Positions 60,131-63,874 of a DNA stretch of 64,000 bases are shown piece after piece. Source of the DNA: Alphaproteobacteria bacterium (GTDB lineage: Bacteria; Pseudomonadota; Alphaproteobacteria; UBA8366); the NCBI GenBank assembly GCA_028281325.1, contig JANQKC010000021.1:1-64000 (forward strand), read 5' to 3'. Below the pieces are notes generated by a model. That model did not search any database. It had not been told where the DNA came from and saw only the letters and a program-made list of their open reading frames with translations. Made by a program: the position numbers and the translations under genes. Every line of letters starts with the position of its first letter. Position 1 is the first letter of the stretch.

Positions 60131-60436
60131 CTAATCGTCCCGCTAACAGCAAGGGATTGATCCTCTGGGATATTCGATATCGCATGAATGTGGTGCCGCG
60201 CGACAAAGCGAATGAATGATTGTTTCCGCTGTTTTTATAGAAATTTCCTATCAGTCTCAGGCTCGGGAGGCGCCAGGCAGAGCATCGTCGTCACCTGATG
60301 CGCCGACACGCCGATCCGTAAAAGTCAGGCGTCAGGATGCGGAATTTTTGATTTGGTAAAATCTGTGCCACCCTTAGACCTTAGCACATCATGGTAGGAT
60401 GAGCGTTCCGTCACTATCACGCAGAGGAGGTCTCGA
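60131..60436. other. 306-bp divergent region between uspA and the selenoprotein gene
   Basis: Contains the OxyR-type element at 60237-60251 on the uspA side. On the selenoprotein side I see AT-rich DNA at 60345-60372 and a strong GAGGAGG ribosome site just before 60437, but no clear operator. Confidence 0.6.
60237..60251. promoter_or_regulatory. OxyR-type element upstream of uspA
   Basis: ATAG-AAATTTC-CTAT is an exact ATAG-N7-CTAT element with the LysR T-N11-A core, 107 bp upstream of the uspA start codon. Confidence 0.6.
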
Positions 60437-61321
60437 ATGGAGCACGTGCGCTACATTGACCGCACAGCAGAGGACTATCGTCGCCAGGGATACGATACCG
60501 AGTATAAATGGGCCCATCACACCGACGCGCCCTTCACGCCACTGACGAAACCCCTTTCGGAATGCACGGTCGGGCTGATCGGCACGAGCGAAGTGGCCGT
60601 GCGATTCGATCCGGAGACCGAGGAAGACCCGATCGTCGAGGAGGATTTCCGCGGCATTTACGCGATCCCGGGGGACGTGCCGACGGACCGCTTCTACAGC
60701 CGGACGTCATCCTTCGACCGGAACGCGACGCATCTGGACGACGTCAACGCCTACTACCCGGTCGATCGCATGCGCGAAGCCGTCGCCGACGGCGTGATCG
60801 GCGCGATGCCGGACCGGTTCTACGGCGCCTACAACAACTATAGCCAACGCAAGGTGCTGACCCAGGAAGCGCCGAAAGCGCTCGAACTGTGCCGCGAAGA
60901 CGGCGTCGATGCGTTGGTGATGGTCCCTCTGTGACCGGTTTGCCATCAGACCGTGAGTCTGATCAGCCGATACATCGAAGAGCATGGCATTCCGACGGTC
61001 GTCATCGGCGCCGCGCGGGACATTGTCGAACATTGCGGCGTCGCCCGCTTCCTGTTCGTCGATTTCCCCTTGGGCAGCCCGTGCGGCGAACCCGGCAATG
61101 TCGAGCAGCAGCGCGGCATTTTCCGGCAAGCGCTCGATCTGCTTGAAACCGCGCCGGGCCCGATGACCACGCAGGAGGCCGGCTACACCTGGAGCAAGGG
61201 CGACGAGTGGAAACGCCTGGTCTTCACCGAGGAACAACCGTGGCAGGACGAAGAGACGAAAGCCGAATGGCTCGCCCGTAAGGAAGAGTACCGGCGGCTG
61301 AAAGAGGAAGGGAAAGTCTGA
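60437..61321 (+). CDS. GrdB-like selenoprotein (glycine/sarcosine/betaine/D-proline reductase selenoprotein B family), Sec at UGA 60932-60934
   Basis: Conventional translation stops at TGA 60932-60934, but the same frame continues without further stops to 61321, giving 294 residues with selenocysteine as residue 166. The motif around it reads VPL-U-PVCHQTVSLIS, that is UxxCxxT, as in selenoprotein B-type reductases. A bacterial SECIS hairpin lies directly downstream. The C-terminal part (GIPTVVIGAARDIVEHCGVARFLFVDFPLG) matches the family. GGAGG precedes the ATG. The stop overlaps the glutaredoxin gene by one base. A GrdB-like reductase role is inferred; the substrate is unknown. Standard gene callers will split or truncate it. 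Confidence 0.9.
60945..60963 (+). promoter_or_regulatory. Bacterial SECIS element
   Basis: ATCAGAC (60945-60951) and GTCTGAT (60957-60963) form a perfect 7-bp stem with loop CGTGA. The apical loop starts 17 nt after the UGA and has G as its second base followed by U, meeting the known bSECIS rules (loop 16-37 nt after UGA, G among the first two loop bases). It lies within the coding frame, as in all bacterial SECIS elements. Confidence 0.85.
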
Positions 61322-61581
61322 TGGGCGACGACGCAGCCGGGGCGGCCAAGGAGGTCATCGTCTACTCGTCGCCCTTCTGCGCGCCTTGCGAAGCGCTCAA
61401 GAAGTTCCTGAGCGAGCGGGATGTCGATTTCACGGTGCGCGATCTGATGATGGACGAGGACGCCCAGGACCGGCTGGAAGAATTCGGGATCCGGTCGACG
61501 CCGGCGCTGGAAATCGATGGCCAGCTTTACGCGGGCGGCGCCCTCAACCCGCAGAACGTGAAAGACCTGTTGAACCTGTGA
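61321..61581 (+). CDS. Small glutaredoxin/NrdH-like protein
   Basis: An 86-residue thioredoxin-fold protein with redox motif FCAPC (C20, C23), the cis-proline region RSTPALEIDG and a C-terminal helix. Its ATG overlaps the selenoprotein stop (TGATG), so the two are translationally coupled. It is a likely electron donor to, or disulfide resolver of, the selenoprotein; this is inferred from the coupling. Confidence 0.88.
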   Translation: MGDDAAGAAKEVIVYSSPFCAPCEALKKFLSERDVDFTVRDLMMDEDAQDRLEEFGIRSTPALEIDGQLYAGGALNPQNVKDLLNL

Positions 61582-61627: not shown

Positions 61628-63874
61628 ATGAGCGGCGCGACGATTTACGAGGCACCCCGACCGACGGCAAAACCCGGCGAGACGGTGGTGACGACGACCT
61701 GCGGGCATAATTGCGGCGGCCGTTGCGTGGTCAACGCCCATGTCGTCGACGGCAAGATCGACCGAATCTCGACCGACTCACGCCGCTGGGACCCGGACCA
61801 TCCGCCGTTGCCTGCCTGCGCGCGCGGCGTCGGCCAGATCGAGCGGGTCTATCATCCCGACCGCCTCAAATATCCGATGCGCCGCACCGGACCGCGCGGC
61901 TCCGGCCAATTCGAGCGGATTTCCTGGGACGAGGCGCTCGACACCGTCGCCCGCGAGATGCTGCGCGTGCGCGACCAATACGGCAACGCGGCGATCCTCG
62001 ACGGGTCGCGGTCTGGCACCACGTCCAGCCTGCACGGCCGCAACGCCGCGAAACGCTTTCTGCACATGTTCGGCGGCTGCACGACTCTCTGGTCGAACAT
62101 GTCCTGCGAGGCCGAGGTCTTCGCCATCCGCCACACCTTCGGGCATGACGTGAACTACAAGGCAGCCGGGCGCGAGCCGACGGACTACGTCAACTCCAAG
62201 CTCATCCTCATGTGGGGATGGTCGCCCGGCGACGGCACCTTCGGCACCGGCACCATGCCCTATCTGAAATGGGCGAAGGAGAACGGCACCCGGATCGTCT
62301 GCGTCGACCCACGCCGCACCCGGACCAGCAAGCAACTGACCGACGAGCATATCTTCATCCGGCCGTCCACCGACGCAGCGGCGCTGATCGCCATGACCCA
62401 GGCGATCGTGGCCGAAGGCCTGCACGACGCCAATTTCTGCCGACGCTACGTCCAAGGTTTCGACGAAGACACCCTGCCGCCGGAAGCGCCCGCCGGCAGT
62501 TCCTATCTTTCCTATCTGACGGGCGATGCCGACGGCGTGGCCAAGACGCCGGAATGGGCCAGCCCGATCACCGGCATCCCGGCCAAGACGATCCGGCAGC
62601 TCGCCATCGACTTCGCGACCAGCAAGCCCGCCGCGATCCACGGCGGCTACGCGCCGGGCCGAACCGCCTACGGCGAGCAGTTCCACCGCGCCGCCTATGC
62701 GCTCGCGGCCGTCACCGGCAGCATCGGCACGCCGGGCGGCAACGCCGGGCCCAGCAACGGGGCGACGGGCCGCGCCGGGATCAAGATGCTGCCCGCCGGC
62801 AAGAACCCGATCGAGTCGAAGGTCGCAACGCCCTTCCTCGGCGATCTGCTGCTGAAGGGCAAGGCGGGCGGGTTCCCGGCCGACATCAAGTTGATCTATT
62901 CGACGGGCGGCGACCTGTTCAACCAATGCTCCAACGCGAGCAAGCTCGCCAAGGCCTTGGACAACGTGGAATTCATCGTCGGCCAGGATCATTTCCTGAC
63001 CCCAACGACACGCCATGCCGATATCGTCCTGCCGGCGACGACCTTCTGGGAACGCAACGACGTGCACACCCCGTGGGCCGGCGCGGGGCATTACGGCATC
63101 TACATGCAGCAGGCGATCGAGCCGATGTACGAATGCCGCAACGACATGGATATCTATGCGGACCTCGCGCAGCGGGTCGGCATCAACGGCTACAACCTGC
63201 AAACGGAAGAAGAATGGCTGCGCGAACTGACGGCGGACGTGGTCGACGATTTCGACGCCTTCCGGGAGAACGGCGTGGCGCGGATGCCGAAACCGGACGA
63301 TGCTGTGGCCTTCGCCAAACAAATCCGCGATCCGGAGAACCACAAGTTCACCACGCCGTCCGGCAAGATCGAAATCTACTCCAGTTTCCTCGGCGAGAAC
63401 CCGGACCCGTACGGTCTGGGCGAGATTTCGCCGATCCCGACCTGGGTGCCGCATGCGGACCTGCCGGACGATGCGGCCTATCCGCTGCGTCTCTGCAGCC
63501 CCAAGTCGCGGGCGCGCACGCATTCGATCCATGGCAACCAGCCGAAACTCGCCAAGGTCGACCCGGACGACGTGTGGATTCATCCGGCGGACGCCGAGGC
63601 GCGCAGCATCGCGCAAGGCGACCGGGTCAAGGTGTTCAACGGCTATGGGGCCACGACACTGGCGGCGCGGGTCACCGAGGACGTGGCGCTTGGGGTCGTG
63701 TCGATCAACGAAGGCGCCTGGTTCACGCCGGATGCCGACGGGACCGACACCTCGGGCTGCGCCAACGCGGTGACGGCCGACACCGCCGCGCCCAGCGGCG
63801 CGATGACCTACAACACCAATTTCGTGGAGATCGCCGCCGCCGACCGGATGTCAGACCGCCCCTTTGCCGCGTAG
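61628..63874 (+). CDS. Molybdopterin-dependent oxidoreductase, DMSO reductase family
   Basis: A 748-residue molybdo-bis-MGD enzyme. An N-terminal [4Fe-4S] motif is formed by C25, C29, C33 and C64 (TTCGHNCGGRC...PACARG). Near residue 159 the segment WSNMSCEAEV aligns with the molybdenum-ligand region of DmsA-type enzymes, suggesting Ser159 as ligand. The C-terminal MGD-binding domain is seen in RLCSPKSRARTHSIHGN and WIHPADAEARSIAQGDRV. There is no Tat signal, so a cytoplasmic enzyme is likely. It follows the glutaredoxin gene by 46 bp on the same strand. Substrate unknown. Confidence 0.9.
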   Translation: MSGATIYEAPRPTAKPGETVVTTTCGHNCGGRCVVNAHVVDGKIDRISTDSRRWDPDHPPLPACARGVGQIERVYHPDRLKYPMRRTGPRGSGQFERISWDEALDTVAREMLRVRDQYGNAAILDGSRSGTTSSLHGRNAAKRFLHMFGGCTTLWSNMSCEAEVFAIRHTFGHDVNYKAAGREPTDYVNSKLILMWGWSPGDGTFGTGTMPYLKWAKENGTRIVCVDPRRTRTSKQLTDEHIFIRPSTDAAALIAMTQAIVAEGLHDANFCRRYVQGFDEDTLPPEAPAGSSYLSYLTGDADGVAKTPEWASPITGIPAKTIRQLAIDFATSKPAAIHGGYAPGRTAYGEQFHRAAYALAAVTGSIGTPGGNAGPSNGATGRAGIKMLPAGKNPIESKVATPFLGDLLLKGKAGGFPADIKLIYSTGGDLFNQCSNASKLAKALDNVEFIVGQDHFLTPTTRHADIVLPATTFWERNDVHTPWAGAGHYGIYMQQAIEPMYECRNDMDIYADLAQRVGINGYNLQTEEEWLRELTADVVDDFDAFRENGVARMPKPDDAVAFAKQIRDPENHKFTTPSGKIEIYSSFLGENPDPYGLGEISPIPTWVPHADLPDDAAYPLRLCSPKSRARTHSIHGNQPKLAKVDPDDVWIHPADAEARSIAQGDRVKVFNGYGATTLAARVTEDVALGVVSINEGAWFTPDADGTDTSGCANAVTADTAAPSGAMTYNTNFVEIAAADRMSDRPFAA

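What the first reader, a model, noticed from the sequence alone, without database searches (positions are those of the whole stretch)
60437..61321. In-frame UGA decoded as selenocysteine in a GrdB-like protein, with a matching SECIS
The frame runs through TGA 60932-60934 and continues with clear family homology. The context is UxxCxxT (U-PVCHQT), and a perfect 7-bp stem with a CGUGA loop starts at the distance required for a bacterial SECIS. These three independent signals agree. The protein is an aerobe-style member of the glycine/betaine/sarcosine/D-proline reductase selenoprotein B group, best known from anaerobic clostridia.
Basis: partly seen in the sequence, partly recalled or inferred. 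Interest (0 to 1): 0.9.

Follow-up and report, generated by a model that had tools for sequence, protein, structure and literature searches.

The report
Stand-alone GrdB-like selenoprotein with SECIS
A gene in an oxygen-respiring alphaproteobacterium almost certainly reads an internal UGA 'stop' as selenocysteine; it belongs to a known family of selenium proteins, but it lacks the partner proteins that give that family its named reaction, so its substrate is still unknown.

Summary
ORF 60437-61321 reads through TGA 60932-60934 and stays in the GrdB/PrdB family on both sides. In 67 distinct homologous sites the codon at residue 166 is TGA (58) or Cys (9), never anything else. The hairpin is a genuine bacterial SECIS: 4 of its 7 pairs show compensatory changes (0 of 500 shuffles reach the covariation score), and its codons are frozen at synonymous sites in Sec copies but free in Cys copies. 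The genome encodes selA, selB, tRNA-Sec and selD (selD is itself a selenoprotein) and six GrdB-like genes, each with one UGA.

The naming needs qualifying. The genome has no GrdE/PrdA pyruvoyl subunit and no GrdA (positive controls rang), and the tree separates this clade from true PrdB. It is therefore unlikely to be a glycine, betaine, sarcosine or proline reductase. In 7 of 11 clade members a CxxC glutaredoxin gene follows; here the two overlap (TGATG). Best reading: a stand-alone selenol reductase that cycles U166-xx-C169 and is re-reduced by that glutaredoxin. The substrate is unknown.

Related proteins are known from marine selenoproteome surveys as 'PrdB' and from NCBI annotation, so this is a new member of a known kind. 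Interest is moderate.

The parts
60425..60430 (+). Shine-Dalgarno sequence AGGAGG, 6 nt before the ATG
   Evidence: read in the sequence
60437..61321 (+). GrdB/PrdB-like selenoprotein gene, 294 residues plus terminal stop TGA
   Evidence: frame and translation; Pfam GRDB 30.2 bits, cut-off 22; homologues over the full length on both sides of the UGA; similar dN/dS before and after the UGA
60932..60934 (+). recoded UGA, selenocysteine 166
   Evidence: 58 TGA and 9 Cys codons, nothing else, in 67 distinct homologous sites
60941..60943 (+). Cys169, presumed resolving residue of the U-x-x-C motif
   Evidence: 11/11 in the clade, 54/60 elsewhere
60945..60951 (+). SECIS stem, 5' arm AUCAGAC
   Evidence: covariation, 0/500 shuffles; model R1 hit of 65.8 bits at 60932-60979 (the window sequence was among those the model was built from)
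60952..60956 (+). SECIS apical loop CGUGA
   Evidence: CGUGA, or CGUGG/CGUGU, in nearly all HQ-type Sec copies
60957..60963 (+). SECIS stem, 3' arm GUCUGAU
61321..61581 (+). CxxC glutaredoxin-like protein; its ATG overlaps the terminal TGA (TGATG); probable electron donor
   Evidence: Pfam Glutaredoxin 52.6 bits; the same neighbour in L019, L021, L024, L025, L053 and L082
61628..63874 (+). DmsA/BisC-type molybdopterin oxidoreductase without visible export signal; same strand, but found next to this gene only in the closest relative
   Evidence: TIGR02166 593 bits, below its cut-off; present in L019, no match in L020-L025

Best explanation
The gene encodes a true selenoprotein. SelB with Sec-tRNA-Sec binds the hairpin just after UGA 166 and inserts selenocysteine; the terminal UGA, with no such hairpin, stops translation. 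(Shown: frame, SECIS conservation, genes of the machinery. Inferred: actual insertion.) The product is a soluble, stand-alone member of the GrdB/PrdB superfamily, lacking the pyruvoyl subunit and GrdA that make up the clostridial reductases. Most likely U166 attacks an electrophilic substrate (an activated C-X, S-X or N-X bond), C169 resolves the adduct as a selenylsulfide, and the adjacent CxxC glutaredoxin re-reduces the enzyme. Two further clade-specific cysteines (C200, C216) may take part. The substrate is unknown; the neighbourhoods point to catabolism or detoxification of small organic compounds, often acyl-CoA linked. (Inferred.) The confidence given is for the selenoprotein and stand-alone part; for the glutaredoxin-recycled reductase mechanism it is about 0.5.
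For: Sec/Cys exclusivity at residue 166; SECIS covariation and synonymous freezing limited to Sec copies; selA, selB, selC, selD in the genome, with SelD carrying a UGA in its GGGUGCKV motif; six GrdB-like genes each with one UGA; tRNA-Sec in 26 of 28 genomes with UGA copies but 0 of 7 with only Cys copies, Fisher p = 5e-6; purifying selection beyond the UGA; glutaredoxin neighbour in 7 of 11 clade members; PF09338 and GrdA absent with positive controls; C200 and C216 in 11/11 clade members; model pLDDT 82, pTM 0.86.
Against: No protein-level or selenium-incorporation data. No glutaredoxin match next to the gene in L020, L022, L023, nor in L084, so the donor is an inference. Neighbourhoods vary (CoA transferases, acyl-CoA ligases and dehydrogenases, PhyH, amidohydrolases, MFS and ABC transporters), so no substrate can be named. 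Six sequences in the wider family have Asp at position 169, so the U-x-x-C resolving step is not universal.
Confidence: 0.9

Rival explanations
1. The UGA is an ordinary stop or a sequencing error: the gene is a truncated or split pseudogene, with the downstream part starting at GTG 60953.
For: A 122-residue ORF does start at GTG 60953, and UGA is a normal stop; one relative (L066) has a stray TAG elsewhere in its frame.
Against: The same UGA recurs in many different genomes at the same residue; the only alternative is Cys; dN/dS is about equally low downstream; the SECIS covaries; the Sec machinery is present.
Confidence: 0.01
2. It is a true PrdB or GrdB working in a classical D-proline, glycine, betaine or sarcosine reductase complex.
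For: Best NCBIfam match is PrdB (112.9 bits); Pfam GRDB above cut-off; U-x-x-C motif as in PrdB; GOS surveys call marine genes of this kind PrdB (PMC2398784).
Against: No GrdE/PrdA (PF09338) in this genome or in six relatives, while Gemella gives 704 bits; no GrdA, while Peptoclostridium gives 263 bits; well below the PrdB cut-off of 300 bits; the tree separates the clade from true PrdB.
Confidence: 0.04
3. It is a selenol reductase or dehalogenase-type enzyme for one defined electrophile, acting like the fluoroacetate-linked FarB of Cloacibacillus rather than as a general thiol oxidoreductase.
For: FarB, a GrdB-like selenoprotein whose partner FarE cannot form a pyruvoyl group, is proposed to cleave C-F (PMC10838667); neighbours here include transporters, CoA transferases and acyl-CoA enzymes.
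Against: FarB still has the paired FarE subunit, and no GrdE relative is found here; no dehalogenation gene is linked; the neighbours vary.
Confidence: 0.2
4. It is a general thiol-disulfide oxidoreductase or peroxide-detoxifying selenoprotein.
For: U-x-x-C motif and glutaredoxin neighbour; aerobic host.
Against: No thioredoxin- or peroxiredoxin-family hit; several divergent paralogues with different neighbours suggest different substrates.
Confidence: 0.25

Closest known systems
D-proline reductase selenoprotein PrdB (TIGR04483)
   Same: homologous over residues 31-239, Sec at the equivalent residue, U-x-x-C motif
   Different: below the family cut-off, no PrdA partner, separate clade, extra C-terminal residues beyond the PrdB model, glutaredoxin neighbour
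Glycine/sarcosine/betaine reductase protein B (GrdB/GrdF/GrdH; PF07355, TIGR01918)
   Same: Pfam family match, Sec/SECIS arrangement
   Different: 294 instead of about 435 residues; the match is to the C-terminal part of the models; no GrdE or GrdA; aerobic host
'Proline reductase PrdB' selenoproteins of ocean metagenomes (PMC1088965, PMC2398784)
   Same: U-x-x-C motif; assigned to Pfam 07355 in the 2008 survey; abundant in sea-water samples
   Different: no sequences were compared here, so identity with this clade is inferred
NCBI 'glycine/sarcosine/betaine reductase selenoprotein B family protein' of alphaproteobacteria (Haematobacter, Roseomonas)
   Same: same subfamily, 39-44% identical
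   Different: Cys instead of Sec
FarB of Cloacibacillus porcorum (PMC10838667)
   Same: GrdB-like selenoprotein proposed to work without a partner-derived pyruvoyl group
   Different: has a FarE partner; strict anaerobe

Membership tests
Bacterial selenoproteins (UGA-decoded Sec) | in-frame UGA with homology on both sides and Cys homologues | tested here: met
Bacterial selenoproteins (UGA-decoded Sec) | SECIS hairpin just 3' of the UGA | tested here: met
Bacterial selenoproteins (UGA-decoded Sec) | selA, selB, selC and selD in the genome | tested here: met
Bacterial selenoproteins (UGA-decoded Sec) | selenium found in the protein | not testable with these tools
   needs mass spectrometry or 75Se labelling
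GrdB/PrdB superfamily (PF07355) | profile match above the curated cut-off | tested here: met
   30.2 bits against 22
D-proline reductase PrdB (TIGR04483) | score above the equivalog cut-off | tested here: not met
   112.9 against 300 bits
D-proline reductase / glycine reductase complexes | pyruvoyl-forming subunit PrdA/GrdE (PF09338) | tested here: not met
   absent in G000, present in Gemella controls
Glycine reductase complex | GrdA selenoprotein (PF04723) | tested here: not met
   absent in G000, 262.8 bits in the Peptoclostridium control
D-proline reductase PrdB | groups with characterised-type PrdB in a tree | tested here: not met
   window in a starred group of 39 rows apart from L126 and L031-L033 (quick tree, midpoint root)
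D-proline / glycine reductase | reduction of proline, glycine, betaine or sarcosine | not testable with these tools
   needs enzyme assay

The most novel reading that the evidence does not exclude
A partner-less, glutaredoxin-fed branch of the GrdB/PrdB superfamily, with several paralogues per genome in aerobic alphaproteobacteria, catalyses a selenol-dependent reduction not yet described; the abundant marine selenoprotein called 'proline reductase PrdB' is largely this branch and is misnamed.
Probability: 0.45. Interest if true: 0.65.

Novelty: new member of a known kind. Interest (0 to 1): 0.4.

Why it matters
'Proline reductase' ranks among the more abundant selenoprotein families in ocean surveys (PMC1088965, PMC2398784, PMC9402790), yet the alphaproteobacterial relatives examined here have no proline reductase partner. 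If they are one and the same, a major use of selenium by sea-water bacteria has been given the wrong enzyme name and its substrate is unknown. The gene pair with a glutaredoxin makes that testable in vitro.

Tried and rejected
Rfam gathering search of the window found nothing, so SECIS had to be tested by comparison. PDB sequence search: nothing convincing; 7rmy at 4e-7 is a de novo designed protein matched over 30 residues. Foldseek against PDB: no match at E <= 0.001; VIA-align best Z 9.4 to LacI/PurR sugar-binding cores, with Rossmann folds just below, 20% identity or less, read as a common Rossmann-like arrangement. The molybdopterin oxidoreductase as functional partner: set aside because it is not next to the gene outside the closest relative. 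The CoA transferase as partner: near the gene in many related loci, but on the opposite strand here. A TAG in a relative (L066) as possible alternative Sec codon: rejected, since residue 166 there is TGC. Literature searches for GrdB-like or PrdB-like stand-alone proteins gave only two Synergistota fluoroacetate papers; wider searches added no function for them.

Full report
Observation. The frame 60437-61321 translates with one internal TGA at 60932-60934 (codon 166) into 294 residues containing U-PVC-HQT. It starts at an ATG 6 nt after AGGAGG and ends at TGA 61319-61321, which overlaps the ATG of the next gene (TGATG). Pfam gives GRDB (PF07355) at 30.2 bits against a cut-off of 22; the match ends at residue 163, just before the Sec, but the NCBIfam PrdB model matches 31-239, across the UGA.

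Is the UGA translated? Residue 166 was located in all loci fetched. In the first set the codons were 50 TGA, 7 TGC and 2 TGT (duplicates included); over 67 distinct sites they were 58 TGA and 9 Cys. On a tree of 71 rows Sec and Cys interchange at least 7 times. Against five relatives, the ratio of amino-acid-changing to silent differences is about as low after the UGA as before it.

Is the hairpin a SECIS? Alone, it is modest: the fold is 1.2 sd better than shuffles, and random synonymous recoding gives stem plus CGUGA loop in 0.26% of draws. Comparatively it is clear. In 27 diverse Sec copies, 95.2% of cells pair, 25 cells have both sides changed, 4 of 7 pairs show compensatory change, the covariation score is 0.415 against 0.141, and no shuffle of 500 reaches it; sliding the partner by one to three columns destroys it. 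In 42 HQ-type Sec copies the codons ACC, GTG and AGT at +6 to +8 are nearly frozen (40/42, 41/42, and all 33 Ser codons AGT), while Cys copies use other codons and mostly lose the stem. A covariance model of the element finds the window site and three other GrdB-like sites in the genome, and not the terminal UGA (some of these sites were in the training set).

Is the machinery there? Yes: selA, selB and tRNA-Sec lie close together on contig C24 (600.6, 451.6 and 76.7 bits), and selD on C17 (411.7 bits). SelD itself has UGA in GGGUGCKV. Six GrdB-like genes, each with one UGA, are in the genome. In a class-wide sample, 35 of 289 genomes have the family; tRNA-Sec at 66 bits or more occurs in 26 of 28 with UGA copies and 0 of 7 with only Cys copies (Fisher 5e-6). 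The 66-bit line was set after seeing a gap between 54.9 and 66.1 bits, because weaker hits probably include other long tRNAs.

What is it? It is homologous to the B subunits of the clostridial reductases but does not meet what defines them. No PF09338 pyruvoyl subunit occurs in this genome or six relatives, while the Gemella control gives 704 bits. No GrdA occurs, while the Peptoclostridium control gives 263 bits. Scores are far below the equivalog cut-offs, and in the tree the window sits in an all-Sec clade of 11 rows within a starred group apart from PrdB of Gemella and Peptoclostridium. The host has two COX1-type oxidase genes. The clade has C169, C200 and C216 in all 11 members; the last two are uncommon elsewhere.

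How does it work? In 7 of the 11 clade members (window, L019, L021, L024, L025, L053, L082) a CxxC glutaredoxin-like gene follows directly. The simplest mechanism is attack by the U166 selenolate, resolution by C169 and re-reduction by the glutaredoxin. This is inference from motif and neighbourhood. Neighbours elsewhere in the family (CoA transferase III, AMP-dependent ligases, acyl-CoA dehydrogenases, PhyH, amidohydrolases, transporters) suggest catabolism of small organic compounds, but do not agree on one substrate. The predicted fold is confident (pLDDT 82, pTM 0.86) and Rossmann-like, with no convincing solved counterpart.

Known or new? Selenoproteins called PrdB were reported as abundant in the Sargasso Sea and GOS data (PMC1088965, PMC2398784) and again in 2021 (PMC9402790). 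NCBI names Cys homologues in alphaproteobacteria 'selenoprotein B family protein'. FarB of Cloacibacillus is the nearest proposal of a GrdB-like protein with other chemistry (PMC10838667). The gene is therefore a new member of a known kind; what is added here is the evidence that this branch lacks the partners of the enzymes it is named after and often sits beside a glutaredoxin.

Noticed in passing
L048 8329-8844 and 9559-10185 (G000:C14:370322-372181): Two GrdB-like selenoprotein genes of the PxCTRAV type in tandem, each with one UGA; weaker SECIS-like hairpins with a different loop.
   Followed up: partly
G000:C33:123515-124432 (L036): A second SelD-type domain (303.7 bits) in an 819-residue open frame without UGA, besides the Sec-containing SelD on C17; possibly a fusion protein.
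   Followed up: no
L066/L104 (G071:C321): A Cys-type relative has an in-frame TAG away from residue 166: assembly error or decaying gene.
   Followed up: partly
window 61628-63874: DmsA/BisC-type molybdopterin oxidoreductase without an obvious twin-arginine signal and without DmsB/DmsC-type neighbours in the stretch read; perhaps a cytoplasmic S- or N-oxide reductase.
   Followed up: partly
L092 and L094 (G281:C84, G187:C113): Two different GrdB-like Sec genes lie about 5-6 kb apart in both genomes, a conserved pairing of two subfamilies.
   Followed up: no
L050 3977-5811 (G000:C24): selA and selB are followed by an ORF that by eye resembles the enolase superfamily, then selC, then an ORF that by eye resembles the AhpD/carboxymuconolactone decarboxylase family.
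   Followed up: no
L128 (Roseomonas haemaphysalidis plasmid p546-2): A Cys-type GrdB-like gene lies next to SelO, a redox-linked AMPylator reported to modify glutaredoxin in E. coli (own knowledge).
   Followed up: no
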